In this document: positions 19,255 to 26,212 of the stretch, piece after piece
How positions within the stretch are numbered: position 1 is the stretch's first letter
How the letters are laid out: each line of letters opens with the position of its first letter
Assembly (NCBI GenBank): GCA_028290665.1
Contig: JAQGJK010000008.1
Coordinates: 1 to 64,000, forward strand
Reading direction: 5' to 3'
Source of the DNA: Devosia sp.
GTDB lineage: Bacteria; Pseudomonadota; Alphaproteobacteria; Rhizobiales; Devosiaceae
Length of the DNA stretch: 64,000 nt
Program-made: the position numbers and the translations under genes
The notes under the pieces: generated by a model
What the model was told of the DNA's origin: nothing
Database searches by the model: none
Seen by the model: only the letters and a program-made list of their open reading frames with translations

Positions 19255-20382
19255 TCAAAGCGGCGGCAGGTCGCCCTGCGCCCACGCGGCGCGGGTCTCT
19301 GCGGCGAAAGTTTCGAATGTTCCGGCCTCGATGGCGGCCCGGGCGCCGATGACCAGCTCTTGGTAATAGGAGAGGTTGATCTGCGAAAGGATCATCGCAC
19401 CCAAAATCTCTTCCAGTTTAACGAGATGGCTCAGATACGCCCGGCTGAAACGTCGGCAATTCGGGTTCGGCGACGCCTCGTCCAGGGGCCGCCTATCATC
19501 CTTATGCCGTGCATTTTTCAGATTGATGACGCCGAAGCGGGTGTAGGCATGCCCGTGCCGGCCGGCCCGCGTCGGGTGCACGCAATCGAACATGTCGATG
19601 CCACGCCCGATGCCGCCAAGAATATCGTCCGGCTTGCCGACGCCCATCAGATAGCGCGGTCGGTACACCGGCAACTCGGGGGTAATCTCGCCAAGCACGC
19701 GGAACATCACTTCCTGCGGCTCGCCGACGGCCAGCCCGCCGACTGCATAGCCATCAAAGCCGATGCTGCGCAAACCGGCGGCCGAACGGGCCCGCAGTTC
19801 CGGATCGTCGCCACCCTGGACGATGCCGAACAGGGCGCGCTGCGGCTGCTGCCCGAACGCGGTCTTGCTGCGTTCGCCCCAGCGCAGCGACAATTCCATG
19901 GCGCGTTCGATCTCCGGTCGTTCCGCCGGCAGCGCGATGCATTCATCGAGCTGCATGACGATGTCGCTGTCGAGCAGGGTCTGGATTTCGATCGAGCGCT
20001 CGGGCGTCAATTCATAGGCCGTGCCGTCGATATGCGACTGGAACGTCACGCCACTCTCGGTCAGCTTCCGGAGCTTTGACAGCGACATCACCTGAAAACC
20101 GCCGCTGTCGGTCAGGATCGGGCGTTGCCAGTCCATGAAATCGTGCAGGCCTCCAAGCGAAGCCACGCGCTCGGCACCAGGCCGCAACATCAGGTGATAG
20201 GTGTTGCCGAGCAGGATATCGGCGCCGGTTTCGCGCACCTGCTCGGGGTACATCGCCTTGACCGTGCCGGCAGTACCGACCGGCATGAATGCCGGGGTGT
20301 GGATTTCGCCACGATGCGTATCGATCCGCCCGCGGCGCGCCGCGCCGTCGGTGGCAATGAGGGTAAAGCTCTGGTCGGTCAC
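19255..20382 (-). CDS. tgt: Queuine tRNA-ribosyltransferase Tgt (zinc ligands mostly absent)
   Basis: A 375-aa enzyme exchanging guanine-34 for the queuine precursor preQ1 in GUN-anticodon tRNAs. The TIM-barrel motifs are intact: '[20 protein letters not shown]', '[12 protein letters not shown]' and '[13 protein letters not shown]', plus '[16 protein letters not shown]' with a catalytic-region Asp. However, the usual C-terminal CxCxxC...H zinc site is not there: the stretch reads '[20 protein letters not shown]' and later '[11 protein letters not shown]', so only the last Cys is kept and the His position is Ile. It starts at GTG 20382, overlapping the queA stop by 4 nt (GTGA), so it is translationally coupled to queA. 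pgi follows 11 nt after its stop. Confidence 0.95.
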
Positions 20383-21458
20383 GCGTGGTCGTCCGCTCTG
20401 TCGGTCTCGGCGCGGATTAGCAGAGATGCGTCGCCGTAGGAATAGAACCGGTAGCCGGTGGCGATGGCATGCGCATAGGCGCGCCGCATCACCTCGAACC
20501 CCGAAAAGGCGCTGACCAGCATGAACAGCGTCGAGCGCGGCAGATGGAAATTGGTCACCAGCCGATCGACGACGCGGAAGCGGTAGCCGGGGGTAATGAA
20601 AATGTCGGTTTCGCCGATGAACCCCTGCAGGGTGCCCGTCGCGCGCGCTGCACTTTCCAGCAGCCGCAGGGTGGTGGTTCCCACCGCGACGATGCGGCTG
20701 CCACGGGCCTTGGCGGCGACAATCCGTTCCGCCGTAGCGGCGTCGATCTCGCCCCATTCCGAGTGCATCACGTGGTCCTTAGTGTCCTCGACCTTGACTG
20801 GCAGGAACGTTCCGGCCCCAACATGCAGCGTCAGCCGTTCTATCGTGACGCCCTTGTCGGCGAGCTTCTGCAACAGCAATTCCGTGAAATGCAGCCCCGC
20901 CGTCGGCGCGGCGACGGCACCGTCGCGGGCAGCGAACACTGTCTGATAGTCGGTGGCATCACTCGCCTCGGCCTTGCGCTTCGCCCCGATATACGGCGGC
21001 AACGGCATGGCGCCATGCGCCTTGATTGCGGAGTCGAGATCGGCACCGTCGAGGTCGAACGCCAGCGTTACCTCCCCGGTTTCGCCGCGCTCCGCAACCG
21101 TGGCGAGGAGTTCGCCCCGAGACCCGAGTTCGAGGCGGTCGCGCACCGCCAGTTTCTTGGCCGGTCGCGCGAAGGCCCGCCAGGTCTGGCTATCGACGCG
21201 CTTGTGCAGATTGAACGACACCTTGGCCCGCACGCCGTCGCGGATGCGATGACCCGACAGTTCGGCCGGCAGCACGCGAGTATCGTTGACCACCAGCACG
21301 TCACCGGCGTCGAGCAGGTCGACCAGATCGGCGACGTGGCGGTCGGCGATGCCTGCTACCGGATCGACAACCAGCAACCGCGCAGCATCGCGCGGCTCGA
21401 GCGGACGCAAGGCGATCTGCTGTTCAGGCAGGTCGAAATCAAAATCGGCAACTTTCAT
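20379..21458 (-). CDS. queA: S-adenosylmethionine:tRNA ribosyltransferase-isomerase QueA
   Basis: A 359-aa enzyme that transfers and isomerises the ribosyl group of SAM to make epoxyqueuosine on tRNA, the step after Tgt. Family motifs: N-terminal '[24 protein letters not shown]', '[14 protein letters not shown]', '[19 protein letters not shown]' and the C-terminal '[19 protein letters not shown]', followed by '[21 protein letters not shown]'. It begins 9 nt after the stop of the last gene of the four-gene secreted cluster, in the same direction, and overlaps tgt at its end. Confidence 0.97.
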
Positions 21459-21467
21459 GCCTGCCTA

Positions 21468-21848
21468 TTAGCAAACCACGGCAAACGCGCCAATGTCCTC
21501 GAGCCACAGGGTGCCGGCGATCACATCATCGGACCCACCGACAAACAGCCGCAGCTTCGCCACCACCCGCTCGGAATTGTCGTCGGTAAAATCGAGCCGG
21601 ATCGACTCGTCATCGCCAAATGCCTGCCCGATCAGGATCGGGATCGCGCCGACCTGCAGTGGGTCAGTCGACCACAGCCGCCCACCCGACTCGATCTCAG
21701 CGCTGAGCGGCGAAATCCCCTGCCCGCCACCCAGCGGCACGCCTGCCGAGGTTCCGGGCACGGTGGCAAAACACACCAGCCCTTCGCCGGCGAGTACTGG
21801 GCTGATGAGCAGCGCCATGGCGACCGGGATTGCGAACAACCTTACCAT
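21468..21848 (-). CDS. Small secreted two-cysteine protein D (pairs with A)
   Basis: A 126-aa protein of unrecognised family, the last of four overlapping genes. A short signal peptide (about residues 1-20, ending 'SPVLAGEG') precedes a mature domain with exactly two cysteines, Cys26 near the mature N-terminus and Cys126 as the very last residue, well placed for a disulfide that closes the domain. It resembles protein A of the cluster: 'RLWSTDPL..GAIPILIGQAF' against 'ESWSTNPELEPGTPILVAQAY', then a Leu/Val-rich strand region and a 'G.L...G..AVVC' ending. I start at ATG 21848, which overlaps the stop of gene C in ATGGTAA. queA starts 9 nt after the stop. Confidence 0.7.
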   Translation of the reverse strand: MVRLFAIPVAMALLISPVLAGEGLVCFATVPGTSAGVPLGGGQGISPLSAEIESGGRLWSTDPLQVGAIPILIGQAFGDDESIRLDFTDDNSERVVAKLRLFVGGSDDVIAGTLWLEDIGAFAVVC

Positions 21849-22258
21849 CCCGTGCACACCACGATGCCGGTCCCGATGCTGACGCCCCCGATCACCCCGG
21901 CGACCACGATATCGGTGTCCGGGCCGACTGGCCCGACATAGTGCGCGGTGCGGACGATGTTGAGGGTGAAGCCGATCGGGCCGACATTGGGCACCGTCAG
22001 CTGGATTTCGAGGTGATTGTAATCTATCATGGAATAGTCCAGCGCGCCCTCGCCCTTTGCCGGGTTCGATGACAGCACGAAATCGCCATCGGTGACGGTC
22101 ACCTCATTGACGGTCCCGCCATCGCGATCCGGGGTGAACGTAATATCGGCCTCGACCGTCGTCGTGCCGTCCAACGTCACGCAGTTGAGCGTATCGGCAA
22201 ACGCCGGCCCGGTTGCCAGCGCGCCAACCAGCAAAAACATCGCCGGCCGGTTCACCAT
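21842..22258 (-). CDS. Small secreted two-cysteine protein C (pairs with B)
   Basis: A 138-aa protein of unrecognised family with a signal peptide (about residues 1-21, 'TGPAFADT') and two mature cysteines, Cys26 and Cys135, close to the two ends. It is clearly paralogous to B: both contain the identical string 'GPDTDIVVAGV', an 'R.AHY' element before it, a 'VGP..F...LVR' strand, and end in C-x-x-W. The start ATG 22258 overlaps the stop of gene B in ATGGTGA, and its own end overlaps the start of gene D in ATGGTAA, so the junction itself appears duplicated. It is probably periplasmic. Confidence 0.72.
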   Translation of the reverse strand: MVNRPAMFLLVGALATGPAFADTLNCVTLDGTTTVEADITFTPDRDGGTVNEVTVTDGDFVLSSNPAKGEGALDYSMIDYNHLEIQLTVPNVGPIGFTLNIVRTAHYVGPVGPDTDIVVAGVIGGVSIGTGIVVCTGW

Positions 22259-22674
22259 GGCGAGCACAACAGCGTCACGGAGCCGACACTCGCGACAGTG
22301 GCGACGCCCGCCACCACGATATCGGTGTCCGGCCCGCCAGCGTCGTCATAATGCGCCGCCCGCACCAGCTGCATGAAAAAAGTCATCGGCCCGACCTCAG
22401 GCGATTCCAACCCGATCTCGATGCGGTCGTAGGCAATGTCGGTGAAAGCCAATATCTCGGCCGCGCGGTCGCTGCCGCCCGGCTCGGTGCTCATGACGAT
22501 ATGCGGCGTTTCCACCCGTACCCGGGTGACCGAGCCGGCACCTCGCGTCGCCTCGAACTCGATCGACACTTCAATAAGCACCGTCTGATCCGGATTTTCG
22601 CAACGAATCGACTCGGCCAGCGCCGGCGTGGTGAAGCACAACAGGCTCGCGCCAAGCATCAGGGCCCTTCGCAT
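22252..22674 (-). CDS. Small secreted two-cysteine protein B (pairs with C)
   Basis: A 140-aa protein of unrecognised family. The signal peptide starts 'MRRALMLGASLL' and ends near 'TTPALAES'; the mature part has Cys25 and Cys137 only. It shares 'GPDTDIVVAGV', 'PEVGPMTFFMQLVRAAHY' and the C-S-P-W ending with the C paralogue. I prefer ATG 22674, giving a basic signal-peptide N-terminus and a 16-nt overlap with gene A, over ATG 22659, which would overlap A by one base but lack the Arg-Arg start. A GTG at 22686 is a further option. Confidence 0.72.
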   Translation of the reverse strand: MRRALMLGASLLCFTTPALAESIRCENPDQTVLIEVSIEFEATRGAGSVTRVRVETPHIVMSTEPGGSDRAAEILAFTDIAYDRIEIGLESPEVGPMTFFMQLVRAAHYDDAGGPDTDIVVAGVATVASVGSVTLLCSPW

Positions 22675-23060
22675 GTCACCACCCACGCGCCCTTGCCGCT
22701 GACCCGAAGGACGCCACCGGAGATGTAGTCGTCGCCCTCGATGGTCATCACCACCTGTAGCGATGCCAGCACCGCCTCAAACCCCACATCGGCAAGATCG
22801 ACATCGAGGGTAGTCTCCGACTCATAAGCCTGCGCCACCAGTATCGGGGTACCCGGCTCCAGCTCCGGGTTAGTCGACCAGCTCTCGTCGCCGACCTGGA
22901 AATTGGCGCGGTTGATGGCGAGAAAACTCAGATGCCCAACCAGCAGCGCGATGCTGGCCTCCCCATCGGCCGAACTGCAGACAATCCATTCGGTCGCCAG
23001 TGCCGGCCGGGCCCCAAGCCCGATCAACAGCACCGCCGCGGTGGCGAGTATTCGTTTCAT
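22659..23060 (-). CDS. Small secreted two-cysteine protein A (first of cluster)
   Basis: A 133-aa protein of unrecognised family, first of the four-gene overlapping series. A typical signal peptide ('MKRILATAAVLLIGLGARPALA') precedes a mature domain with only two cysteines, Cys28 and Cys130, at its ends. It is similar to D in overall plan and in the 'WSTNPELEPGTPILVAQAY' region. The ATG at 23060 is chosen; a TTG at 23078 would add six residues. It begins only 21 nt after a strong hairpin that terminates the upstream cyclophilin gene, so its own promoter must lie in or just before that hairpin, or expression depends on readthrough. Confidence 0.7.
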   Translation of the reverse strand: MKRILATAAVLLIGLGARPALATEWIVCSSADGEASIALLVGHLSFLAINRANFQVGDESWSTNPELEPGTPILVAQAYESETTLDVDLADVGFEAVLASLQVVMTIEGDDYISGGVLRVSGKGAWVVTCEGP

Positions 23061-23081
23061 GTGACGGAAAGCCCCCAATGC

Positions 23082-23108
23082 AAAAAGCCGCCGGCGGTAA
23101 CCGGCGGC
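23082..23108 (-). terminator. Terminator / possible attenuator ahead of the secreted-protein cluster
   Basis: On the minus strand GCCGCCGG-loop-CCGGCGGC is followed by five T residues. It sits 54 nt after the cyclophilin stop codon and 21 nt before the start of gene A, in the path of transcription between them. Confidence 0.85.
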
Positions 23109-23162
23109 CCCTGCTGTGGGCGCTATCGCATCGCTCGCGTGAACCGCGGCTGAATGGCGAGA

Positions 23163-23642
23163 TCAGGCGGCGATGTCGGCTGCGACCTTGACGGTGGTCA
23201 TTTTGTCGGGATCACGCACCGGCTCGCCGCGCTTGATCTTGTCGACATTTTCCATGCCTTCGATGACCTTGCCCCAGGCGGTGTACTGCTTGTCGAGGAA
23301 GCGGGCGTCATCGAAGACGATGAAGAACTGCGAGTTGGCGCTGTCGGGGCTCTGCGAGCGGGCCATCGAGACGACACCGCGGACATGCGGCTCGGCGTTG
23401 AATTCGGCTTTCAGGTCCGGGTACTTCGAACCGCCGGTGCCGGTGCCCTTGGGACAGCCGGTCTGCGCCATGAAGCCGTCGATGACGCGATGGAACACGA
23501 TGTTGTCATAAAACCCTTCACGCGCCAGCTTCTTGATGTGCGCGACGTGGTTGGGCGCGAGGTCGGGGCGCATGGCAATGACCACGCGGCCCTTGGTGGT
23601 TTCGATGATTAGGGTGTTTTCGGGGTCGGTGATGTCGGCCAT
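23163..23642 (-). CDS. ppiB: Peptidyl-prolyl cis-trans isomerase, cyclophilin type (cytoplasmic)
   Basis: A 159-aa cyclophilin without a signal peptide, catalysing proline isomerisation in protein folding. The catalytic core 'YDNIVFHRVIDGFMAQTGCP' contains the active-site Arg; 'NSQFFIVFDDARFLDKQYTAWGKVIEGM' follows in the usual place. It lies 25 nt downstream of a second cyclophilin that does carry a signal peptide, so the pair covers cytoplasm and periplasm. A terminator follows. Confidence 0.95.
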   Translation of the reverse strand: MADITDPENTLIIETTKGRVVIAMRPDLAPNHVAHIKKLAREGFYDNIVFHRVIDGFMAQTGCPKGTGTGGSKYPDLKAEFNAEPHVRGVVSMARSQSPDSANSQFFIVFDDARFLDKQYTAWGKVIEGMENVDKIKRGEPVRDPDKMTTVKVAADIAA

Positions 23643-23667
23643 GGCTCAAGGTTTTCCGTTGTAAAAA

Positions 23668-24219
23668 TCAGCGATATTCGATGGTGGCGGCGATGATCTT
23701 GTCCGGGTTCGCTGGCGGCTCGCCCTTGGTGATGTTATCGACGAACTCCATGCCGGCGACGACTTTGCCGAACACGGTGTACTGGTTGTTGAGGAAGCTC
23801 GCATCGGCGAAGGTGATGAAAAACTGCGAGTTGAAGGTATCGGGATCGGCCGTGCGCGCCGCGCCGACCGTGCCCCGCACATAGGGTTCAGCGTTGAATT
23901 CCGCAACAACGTCGGGCAGGTCCGAACCGCCGGCGCCGGTGCCGGTCGGATCGCCGGTCTGGGCCATGAAGCCGTCGATGACGCGGTGGAAGACGATACC
24001 GTTGTAGAATCCCTGTTCGGTCAGCGCGACGATGCGCTCGACGTGCTTGGGCGCCAGTGCCGGCAGCAGTTCGATATCGACCGTACCGTCCTTGAGTTGC
24101 AGCATCACGTGCGGTGTGCCGGTCTGGGCTGATGCAGCGGTCATGCCGGCGGTCAGCAGGGCGAAGCCGACAATTATGGCGCTCGCCAGCTTGCTGGCGG
24201 CTCGTGCGAATGTGTTCAT
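23668..24219 (-). CDS. Peptidyl-prolyl cis-trans isomerase, cyclophilin type (periplasmic)
   Basis: A 183-aa cyclophilin with a signal peptide (about residues 1-31, ending 'MTAASAQT'), so it should work in the periplasm on exported proteins. 'YNGIVFHRVIDGFMAQTGDP' and 'NSQFFITFADASFLNNQYTVFGKV' carry the catalytic residues. It starts 4 nt before the end of coaD (ATGA overlap) and is followed by the cytoplasmic paralogue; the two are about half identical by eye and probably arose by tandem duplication. Confidence 0.95.
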   Translation of the reverse strand: MNTFARAASKLASAIIVGFALLTAGMTAASAQTGTPHVMLQLKDGTVDIELLPALAPKHVERIVALTEQGFYNGIVFHRVIDGFMAQTGDPTGTGAGGSDLPDVVAEFNAEPYVRGTVGAARTADPDTFNSQFFITFADASFLNNQYTVFGKVVAGMEFVDNITKGEPPANPDKIIAATIEYR

Positions 24220-24707
24220 GATGATCGGAGGGCTTTCAGTACGAGCTGTGGGACAAAGGCGGTGATGTCGCCGCCCATTTCAGCGATTTGCCGCACCAGC
24301 GTGGCCGAGATGTGGCGCACATGCGGGCTCGAGGGCAGGAACACCGTTTGCAAATCAGGCGCCATCTGGGCGTTCATCCCGACCATCTGCATCTCGAAAT
24401 TGTAATCGGTGGTATCGCGCAAACCGCGGATGATCAGCTTGGCGCCGTGCTGGCGCGCCGCCTGCACCATCAGCCCCTCGAACTCGACCACTTCGAATTC
24501 GGTCTCGGTCCTGCGGCCGATCGGCTCCAGCACCTGCTTCAGTAGCGACAGCCGCGCCTCGTGGGTAAACAGGCCCTTTTTCGAATGGTGCGTTCCGACG
24601 CCGACGATCAAGGTGTCGACGAGCTTGCAGGCCCGTTCGACGACGTCGAGGTGGCCATTGGTCACCGGATCGAACGATCCAGGATAAAATCCGACAAGTT
24701 TCGTCAT
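24216..24707 (-). CDS. coaD: Phosphopantetheine adenylyltransferase CoaD
   Basis: A 163-aa enzyme of coenzyme A biosynthesis that joins AMP to 4'-phosphopantetheine. The nucleotidyltransferase signature 'GFYPGSFDPVTNGHLDVVERA' is at the N-terminus and 'HHSKKGLFTHEARLSLL', 'IIRGLRDTTDYNFEMQM' and 'HISATLVRQIA' follow as in the family. I chose the internal ATG at 24707, which places the signature near residue 4; the frame runs 13 codons further upstream. It is first in the coaD-cyclophilin-cyclophilin unit. Confidence 0.96.
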   Translation of the reverse strand: MTKLVGFYPGSFDPVTNGHLDVVERACKLVDTLIVGVGTHHSKKGLFTHEARLSLLKQVLEPIGRRTETEFEVVEFEGLMVQAARQHGAKLIIRGLRDTTDYNFEMQMVGMNAQMAPDLQTVFLPSSPHVRHISATLVRQIAEMGGDITAFVPQLVLKALRSS

Positions 24708-24860
24708 CGCCGTTCCGCTCCCCCGGATGCCGCCGCGTTGTGTCACGACACCCGGCGAGGTGCAAGCACGGCAAATAAACCAGCGATTTCCGCTGCTAGA
24801 CTTAAAACTCTTTTCAGGTGTCGGGTGCAGTGTACCGACACTAATTTCGAGTGAGGCACG

Positions 24861-25604
24861 ATGTCGGGGCGCGCTGCAGTTCGTTCGTTACGGGAAAGCG
24901 GTGCCTTTGCGCCGTCGTCGCGCAACAGCGAAGCACTCACCTTGGTAATGATCGTGTTCGCCACCTTCGCCCTCGGCTGCGGCGCCTTTTTCGGCGTCAG
25001 CTGGATGATCAAGGCCGCCGGCCCCAGTACCCAGAAAATGGCGCCGCTGGTGATGGTCGCCGACCTTAGCCGGATCTGGACCCCCAAGGACACCGCCTCC
25101 TGCGAGGTCTACGCCAATGCTAACAATGATAGAGACGAAGAACTCCGCGCCGGCGCAGCGGTCCTGCTTGGCAACCAGATCGCTAGCGGCGCCTTCGCCC
25201 GTGAAGCGCGGCGGCTCAATTGCTACGCCAGCACCAAGATCGCCCGGCTGTGCGACGGCGAAGAACGCAAGATTTTCGTCTCGCTGGTCGATCGCTATGT
25301 CACCCGCCTCGACCTGATGGCCGTGGCGATGAATCTGACCTCGGACCAGATGAGCCTCCTTGCCGGTGTTGGCATCGGCGGCCAGGAAGCCAAACTCGGC
25401 ACCGCCCTCTATGACATGGGCCTGTCGGCCACTGTCGATTACGTCAAATTCTATCACGCCGACATCACCGCGAGTCTCCGCAAGCTGGCGACCAAGGGTC
25501 TGCTGTCGAGCAATGATTTCGGGGTCATCCTCGGCCTCGGCGCCTCGCCGACGATCAAGCACATCCTCGACAACATTACGCCGGTCGAAACCGTCTGCTC
25601 CTAA
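24861..25604 (+). CDS. Hypothetical membrane-anchored protein, 247 aa
   Basis: I do not recognise this family. An N-terminal cytoplasmic tail of about 27 residues precedes one transmembrane segment (about residues 28-50, 'LVMIVFATFALGCGAFFGVSWMI'), followed by a soluble, mostly helical domain with four cysteines (around residues 80, 121, 130 and 246), presumably periplasmic. The ribosome site GTGAGGCACG lies just before the ATG. It is divergent from coaD and overlaps the LysE gene end by 4 nt on the opposite strand. Upstream, GTGTCGG and CCGACAC (24818-24841) form an inverted repeat in front of the start that could be an operator or a hairpin. Confidence 0.65.
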   Translation: MSGRAAVRSLRESGAFAPSSRNSEALTLVMIVFATFALGCGAFFGVSWMIKAAGPSTQKMAPLVMVADLSRIWTPKDTASCEVYANANNDRDEELRAGAAVLLGNQIASGAFAREARRLNCYASTKIARLCDGEERKIFVSLVDRYVTRLDLMAVAMNLTSDQMSLLAGVGIGGQEAKLGTALYDMGLSATVDYVKFYHADITASLRKLATKGLLSSNDFGVILGLGASPTIKHILDNITPVETVCS

Positions 25605-26212
25605 CGCCCGTGCTGCAGCGCCAGCCACAGCGCTGCGCCGATAAGCAGCACTCCGGCGCCACGATTAATCCACGCCGACCCCGCAAACCGCCGATGCGCT
25701 TGCGCTGCAGCGACGGCGTAACCGAGGTCGCACAACGCCGCGATCAGCATTTCAAGCAGTCCTAGGGCGATGATCTGCGGCCAGGCCGGAAACGCCGGAT
25801 TGACAAATTGCGGCAGCAGCGCCCCGAAAAACAAGATCGCCTTGGGGTTGGTCCACGGCACGAAAAACCCGCCGACGAACAGCCCGGCGGCTCCCGCTCC
25901 ACCGACCGAGCGCCCGGCTGTCCCGGGCGGCGCGACAAGGAAGCGATAGCCGAGCCACAGCAGGTACCCGACGCCGGCGAACTTGATCCAGTCGAAAGCC
26001 GCCGCCATCACCAGGGTAACGGTCGACAGCGCAACCGCAACCAGCAGCACCATGCTGAGCCGACCGGCCTGAATGCCGAGTTCGACTATCGCGGCGGCGG
26101 CAAGGCCGCGCGACAATGCCGTTCCCATCACCGCCGAAACCGCAGCTCCCGGCACGGTGCAAACCAGCACTGCCGCAGCGACGAACGACAGCAGGCCTGA
26201 AACGTCCGGCAT
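25601..26212 (-). CDS. LysE/RhtB family amino-acid exporter
   Basis: A 203-aa inner-membrane protein with six predicted membrane segments and the family pattern: N-terminal 'FVAAAVLVCTVPGAAVSAVMG', 'LGIQAGRLSMVLLVAVALS', 'GYLLWLGYRFLV' and 'VPWTNPKAILFFGALLPQFV', the last being the LysE signature region. Members export lysine, homoserine, threonine or related compounds; the substrate here is open. It lies 11 nt downstream of gyrA in the same direction and may be read through from it. Confidence 0.88.
   Translation of the reverse strand: MPDVSGLLSFVAAAVLVCTVPGAAVSAVMGTALSRGLAAAAIVELGIQAGRLSMVLLVAVALSTVTLVMAAAFDWIKFAGVGYLLWLGYRFLVAPPGTAGRSVGGAGAAGLFVGGFFVPWTNPKAILFFGALLPQFVNPAFPAWPQIIALGLLEMLIAALCDLGYAVAAAQAHRRFAGSAWINRGAGVLLIGAALWLALQHGR

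What the first reader, a model, noticed from the sequence alone, without database searches (positions are those of the whole stretch)
21468..23060. Four overlapping genes for small secreted proteins, two paralogous pairs (A-B-B'-A'), each with exactly two mature cysteines
Four consecutive minus-strand genes each encode a signal peptide plus a small domain with one cysteine near the mature N-terminus and one at or near the last residue (C28/C130, C25/C137, C26/C135, C26/C126). B and C share an identical 11-residue string and a C-x-x-W ending; A and D share the 'WST(N/D)P...PIL' region. Neighbouring genes overlap, and the B/C and C/D junctions use the same ATGGTRA overlap, which suggests duplication of a gene together with its junction. 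I recognise no family. A co-translated set of periplasmic proteins with closed beta-type domains could form a hetero-oligomer.
Basis: partly seen in the sequence, partly recalled or inferred. Interest (0 to 1): 0.75.

Follow-up and report, generated by a model that had tools for sequence, protein, structure and literature searches.

The report
Unnamed secreted two-cysteine barrel protein family
Four neighbouring genes in a Devosia-related bacterium all belong to one unnamed family of small exported proteins, predicted to be little beta-barrels clasped end to end by one disulfide, which sits next to protein-folding enzyme genes across this bacterial family and whose job nobody has tested.

Summary
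Four overlapping minus-strand genes (21468-23060) encode exported proteins, each with exactly two mature cysteines. A/D and B/C are significant matches (BLASTP 3e-13 and 6e-30).

The reading changes in one main way: all four are one family. Profile comparison of the A/D-type with the B-type gives hhalign 98%, E 9.6e-15. In a 94-member collection every protein has exactly two cysteines, at the same two places, usually after an A-x-A cleavage site. AlphaFold gives the same 8-9-strand antiparallel barrel for A (mature pLDDT about 94) and B (lower confidence). The two cysteines lie in the first and last strands.

The family has no Pfam, NCBIfam, PHROG or PADLOC name and is nearly confined to Hyphomicrobiales. 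In Devosiaceae it sits between a cyclophilin gene (ppi2) and queA, usually as one copy; four here is the maximum seen. The A and D classes are old and recur as neighbours in other genomes. B/C is a later duplication of a third class. The genes are under purifying selection but diverge far faster than their neighbours.

Best reading: exported, disulfide-clasped binding or inhibitor barrels that diversify by tandem duplication. The function is inferred. A hetero-oligomer of four is unsupported but not excluded.

The parts
22659..23060 (-). Gene A (133 aa): signal peptide ending A-L-A at residue 22, mature two-Cys barrel (C28, C130); A class
   Evidence: translation; A1 profile 7e-46; AlphaFold pLDDT 88.9; tree: with A-class genes of four other Devosiaceae genomes
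22252..22674 (-). Gene B (140 aa): signal peptide ending A-L-A, mature C25/C137, C-x-x-W end; B class
   Evidence: translation; homologue in the same slot in G028 (46% identity); A1 profile 2e-7; AlphaFold pLDDT 80.7 with the same strand order
21842..22258 (-). Gene C (138 aa): paralogue of B, mature C26/C135, C-x-x-W end; B class
   Evidence: translation; BLASTP with B 6e-30; A1 profile 4e-5
21468..21848 (-). Gene D (126 aa): mature C26/C126 (last residue is Cys); D class, directly upstream of queA
   Evidence: translation; BLASTP with A 3e-13; D-class branch in the tree
23163..23642 (-). Flank: ppi2, cyclophilin-type peptidyl-prolyl isomerase without an evident signal peptide
   Evidence: PF00160 3.9e-43; conserved upstream neighbour
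23668..24219 (-). Flank: ppi1, cyclophilin-type peptidyl-prolyl isomerase with an N-terminal signal-peptide-like segment, so probably exported
   Evidence: PF00160 2.6e-39; N-terminus read from the sequence
20379..21458 (-). Flank: queA (queuosine biosynthesis), conserved downstream neighbour
   Evidence: PF02547 6.7e-124
23078..23110 (-). GC-rich hairpin followed by U5 between ppi2 and A; possible intrinsic terminator or attenuator (boundaries approximate)
   Evidence: fold of 23040-23165 minus strand, -56.3 kcal/mol, z -3.9; the consensus terminator scan did not list it

Best explanation
A, B, C and D are four tandem members of one uncharacterised family of small exported proteins found in Hyphomicrobiales. 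Each is made with a Sec-type signal peptide and cut by signal peptidase I about six residues before a conserved cysteine. It then folds in the periplasm (or beyond) into a closed antiparallel beta-barrel of about eight main strands. The first cysteine (first strand) and the second cysteine (last strand) most likely form a disulfide that clasps the two ends of the barrel. The family entered the coaD-ppi1-ppi2-queA cluster early and multiplied there; A and D are old classes, and B and C a later duplication of a third class. The most likely role is a binding protein: a periplasmic or secreted binder or inhibitor of a small ligand or of a protein such as a hydrolase, with paralogues of different specificity. 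SHOWN: the genes, homology of all four, the family, invariant cysteines, conserved location, purifying selection with fast divergence. PREDICTED: barrel fold, export, position of the cysteines. INFERRED: the disulfide, and the binding or inhibitor role. (My confidence is about 0.9 for the family and export, about 0.4 for the binding role; the figure given is for the whole.)
For: One family: A1 versus A2 on mature regions, hhalign E 1.4e-7 against a best of 0.038 in 100 column-shuffled controls; 79 A/D-type versus 15 B-type rows, 98.4%, E 9.6e-15; the A/D-type HMM finds B at 2e-7 and C at 4e-5; same strand order in the A and B models. Export and clasp: 94 of 94 proteins have exactly two cysteines from the first conserved one on, at aligned columns; 89 of 94 have an A/V/S-x-A motif, usually 6 residues before the Cys; none has a lipobox. 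Fold: A model with most barrel blocks at 94-98 pLDDT; nearest solved folds are eight-stranded barrels. Location: ppi2-family-queA across Devosiaceae, and in the same cluster in five genomes of other families. Selection: dN/dS 0.07-0.32; median identity to the window copy 34-35% for A and D against 73-84% for queA, ppi2, coaD and tgt. Not an obvious enzyme: beyond Cys and Gly only R102 and D91 are nearly invariant across classes.
Against: No member has been studied, so the role is not shown. No ligand, target or partner is known, and most gene neighbours are housekeeping genes. The near-invariant Arg and Asp could belong to an unrecognised active site. The B model is less sure (pLDDT 80.7) and its alignment contained A-type rows, so the fold agreement is not fully independent. 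Coordinates were not readable, so the distance between the two cysteines was not measured.
Confidence: 0.5

Rival explanations
1. The four proteins assemble into a hetero-oligomer in the periplasm, with A and D as an old obligate pair and B and C as added subunits.
For: Genes overlap and are probably co-translated. All six D-class genes found lie directly behind another family gene (B-class in the window, A-type in five other genomes), and an A-type gene is present in each of these loci.
Against: 39 of 57 stretches with the family have a single copy, and no other genome has the four-gene order. In the nearest structural analogue for B, DUF1842-DUF1843, an assembly was predicted from repeated paralogues in one operon, but the protein behaved as a monomer (PMC10994174).
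Confidence: 0.12
2. They are inhibitors of host or rival hydrolases (lysozymes, proteases), working like MliC/PliC or Inh barrels.
For: Small exported barrels with one likely disulfide, fast divergence under constraint, tandem multiplication; such inhibitors are a common use of this architecture (own knowledge).
Against: No sequence relation to Inh or MliC (hhalign 0.2-1.3%, controls 99.9-100%). Devosiaceae encode ordinary Inh and MliC proteins elsewhere.
Confidence: 0.2
3. They bind a small molecule inside the barrel, as avidins and lipocalins do.
For: Foldseek's best hit for B is agroavidin (E 0.0098, prob 0.97); avidins score Z about 7 (A) and 8 (B).
Against: No profile relation to avidins (0.1%, control 98.1%). 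Z under about 8 may be only a common arrangement (notes).
Confidence: 0.15
4. They are partners or special clients of the neighbouring cyclophilins, for example helping or regulating envelope protein folding.
For: The family gene lies beside the ppi pair in Devosiaceae and, in five genomes of other families, either after ppi2 or before ppi1. ppi1 has a signal-peptide-like N-terminus.
Against: The ppi-queA cluster exists without the family in many genomes, and several family members lie far from any ppi gene.
Confidence: 0.08
5. A/D and B/C are two unrelated families that only converged on two cysteines.
For: BLASTP-level similarity is strong only within A/D and within B/C; A-B identity in the alignment is about 20%.
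Against: Profile comparisons, including mature-only with shuffled controls, join them; same predicted strand order.
Confidence: 0.03

Closest known systems
DUF1842 (N-terminal barrel of Burkholderia Q63NT7, PDB 8T1M/8T0B)
   Same: Best structural match of the B model (Z 10.1, rmsd 3.3 over 103 residues): an eight-stranded antiparallel barrel of unknown function. Its partner domain DUF1843 also tends to appear as repeated paralogues in one operon (PMC10994174).
   Different: No sequence match (Pfam scan of 28 members up to E 1). DUF1842 is joined to a helical DUF1843 domain; the paper's text does not mention a disulfide; it was not among the listed hits of the A model.
Bacterial avidins (PF01382: rhizavidin, bradavidin, agroavidin)
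   Same: Small barrels, Z about 7-8.
   Different: No profile relation; no Pfam hit.
MliC (PF09864) and Inh (PF02974) inhibitors
   Same: Architecture: small exported barrels (own knowledge); both families occur in the same order.
   Different: No profile relation.
Barrels of surface or secreted binders: factor H binding protein C-terminal domain, hemophilin
   Same: Eight-stranded barrels: Z about 7 (fHbp); Foldseek prob 0.94-0.99 (hemophilin).
   Different: Those are parts of larger proteins; Foldseek E 0.016 or weaker, so no evidence of common descent.

Membership tests
Unnamed Hyphomicrobiales two-cysteine barrel family (defined here) | Exactly two cysteines in the mature protein, in the first and last strand | tested here: met
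   94 of 94; C28 in strand 24-30 and C130 in strand 124-131 of A
Unnamed Hyphomicrobiales two-cysteine barrel family (defined here) | Significant profile match of A, B, C and D to one model | tested here: met
   A 3.5e-46, D 1.7e-37, B 9.5e-29, C 1.6e-28 with A4 (the model contains these four). Independent: A1, which has neither B nor C, finds B 2e-7 and C 4e-5
Avidin (PF01382) | Sequence profile match | tested here: not met
   no Pfam hit up to E 1; hhalign 0.1% against avidins of the same order, split-half control 98.1%
Avidin (PF01382) | Biotin binding | not testable with these tools
   needs protein
Inh protease inhibitor (PF02974) | Sequence profile match | tested here: not met
   no Pfam hit; hhalign 0.2% for the family, 1.3% for the B class, control 100%
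MliC lysozyme inhibitor (PF09864) | Sequence profile match | tested here: not met
   no Pfam hit; hhalign 0.3-0.8%, control 99.9%
DUF1842 | Sequence profile match | tested here: not met
   no Pfam hit up to E 1 for 28 members
DUF1842 | Eight-stranded antiparallel barrel of the same topology | tested here: inconclusive
   B model Z 10.1; not among the listed rows for the A model, whose best Z is 8.8 to another barrel

The most novel reading that the evidence does not exclude
An order-restricted family of disulfide-clasped barrels in which the A and D classes form an obligate periplasmic hetero-oligomer, extended in this organism by the B and C barrels into a four-subunit assembly built from one operon by tandem duplication.
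Probability: 0.1. Interest if true: 0.55.

Novelty: new variant of a known kind. Interest (0 to 1): 0.4.

Why it matters
It defines an unnamed, widespread protein family with a clean signature (two invariant cysteines, predicted barrel, conserved Arg and Asp, fixed place beside cyclophilin genes) in bacteria whose exported proteins are poorly known. The genes diverge fast yet are kept, which may mark contact with a changing partner (ligand, enzyme, phage or rival). The old A-D pair and the many single-copy genomes make the questions of partner, pairing and specificity directly testable in cultured Devosia.

Tried and rejected
Pfam, NCBIfam, PHROGs, PADLOC: no match. PDB by sequence: nothing better than E 1.2. 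Plasmid records: none. The first genome-contig scan with P0001 alone found no relative; the full alignment A1 had no conserved stretch to scan with; a closer subset worked. Foldseek on A: nothing under E 0.1. Rfam in 20000-25700: none. The consensus promoter scan found nothing, which says little for alphaproteobacteria. A first avidin/Inh/MliC comparison was spoiled by wrong-strand translations (those rows only) and repeated. Literature searches found no paper on this family. Recent duplication of the whole four-gene block was rejected because A and D fall in separate old classes shared with other genera.

Full report
OBSERVATION. Each has a signal peptide and two mature cysteines at the stated positions. 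A/D match at E 3e-13 and B/C at 6e-30. Overlaps are 16, 7 and 7 nt, and D ends 9 nt before queA. B and C share GPDTDIVVAGV, encoded by an exact 20-nt repeat.

NEIGHBOURHOOD. Upstream are coaD and two cyclophilin-type isomerases, ppi1 (signal-peptide-like N-terminus) and ppi2; downstream queA, tgt and pgi. A strong hairpin with a U-run lies between ppi2 and A. The window's genome is an incomplete assembly (61% complete) in a family whose named relatives are Devosia, so most likely Devosiaceae. No further member was found in the held part of the genome.

ONE FAMILY, NOT TWO. A profile of A/D-type proteins finds B at 2e-7 and C at 4e-5. Profile-profile comparison gives 96.9% with signal peptides. 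With mature regions only it gives 94%, E 1.4e-7, while the best of 100 column-shuffled controls reached 0.038. With 79 and 15 sequences it gives 98.4%, E 9.6e-15. AlphaFold models of A (pLDDT 88.9) and B (80.7) have the same order of strands.

DISTRIBUTION. Of 136 genomes of the same family 63 have a match, in 12 of 16 genera. In the stretches read, nearly all lie between ppi2 and queA. In genomes without a match, ppi2 and queA are adjacent or separated by something else. Outside the family a minority of Hyphomicrobiales genomes have one (several listed matches there are marginal). Five such genomes have it in the same cluster, after ppi2 or before ppi1; the others have it elsewhere. In 385 genomes drawn across the class only the window's own genome matched strongly, with one other marginal at 1.7e-4. 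Of 57 stretches examined, 39 carry one copy, 15 two, 2 three and the window four.

HISTORY. In a tree of 94 mature sequences the window A falls with A-class genes of G084, G019, G141 and G142, and D with D-class genes of G019, G013, G084, G141 and G137 (branch support 82-94, short alignment, so moderate). B and C group with the G028 gene (99), and this group joins a second-gene class of many Devosia-like genomes and one gene from another family (96). So A and D separated before these genera did, and B/C is a later duplication. The shared ATGGTRA overlap is weak evidence, since the terminal Trp-stop is kept in L024 without any overlap.

SELECTION. Close pairs show dN/dS of 0.07 to 0.32, so these are functional genes. 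Yet median identity to the window copy is 34-35% (A, D) against 73% (queA), 81% (ppi2), 79% (coaD) and 84% (tgt) in the same set. This may be relaxed constraint on surface residues or adaptation to a changing partner; the data do not decide.

ANATOMY. All 94 proteins have exactly two cysteines from the first conserved one on, at the same two columns; 89 have an A/V/S-x-A motif 3-8 residues before the first; none has a lipobox. In A the first Cys is in strand 24-30 and the last in strand 124-131. Strands alternate hydrophobic and polar residues. Across both classes the most conserved positions are C28, C130 and G116 (all), R102 (88 of 94) and D91 (82 of 94). A disulfide between the first and last strand follows naturally but was not measured.

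FOLD RELATIVES. Foldseek finds nothing significant. VIA-align places A and B among eight-stranded barrels: A best Z 8.8; B best Z 10.1 to DUF1842, then avidins and the fHbp barrel. These are resemblances of architecture. Sequence profiles show no detectable relation to avidins, Inh and MliC, with positive controls. The DUF1842 paper is a caution: repeated paralogues in one operon suggested an assembly, but the protein was a monomer (PMC10994174).

MECHANISM. I favour an exported, disulfide-clasped binding barrel (ligand binder or inhibitor) diversified by tandem duplication. Export and fold are predictions; binding is inference from architecture, absence of an obvious catalytic set and the pattern of divergence. 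A hetero-oligomer is possible, above all for A with D, but single copies are the rule.

VERDICT. A real, unnamed, order-restricted family; good observation, pairs correct, history and scope revised; function open.

Noticed in passing
window 23078-23110, minus strand: Strong GC hairpin with U5 between ppi2 and gene A; a possible terminator or attenuator that would separate A-D from ppi2 transcription.
   Followed up: partly
window 21903-21922 and 22313-22332: Exact 20-nt repeat in B and C, which are otherwise only 39% identical in protein; may reflect strong local constraint or a short gene conversion.
   Followed up: partly
L114, L115, L116, L119 (ppi2-queA interval): Some Devosiaceae without the family carry a small multi-spanning membrane protein (DMT-like by eye) in the same slot, so the slot is a variable insertion place.
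   Followed up: no
L127 (2935-3542, oriented): In one genome the slot holds what looks by eye like a ParD/ParE-type toxin-antitoxin pair.
   Followed up: no
L075 / L194 (G084): An A-D pair lies away from queA, with the closest A-class relative found (58% identity to A); relocation or transfer of the pair as a unit.
   Followed up: partly
window 24861-25604, plus strand: A 247-aa protein with no Pfam match lies on the opposite strand beside coaD; a weak relative lies near coaD in L025.
   Followed up: no
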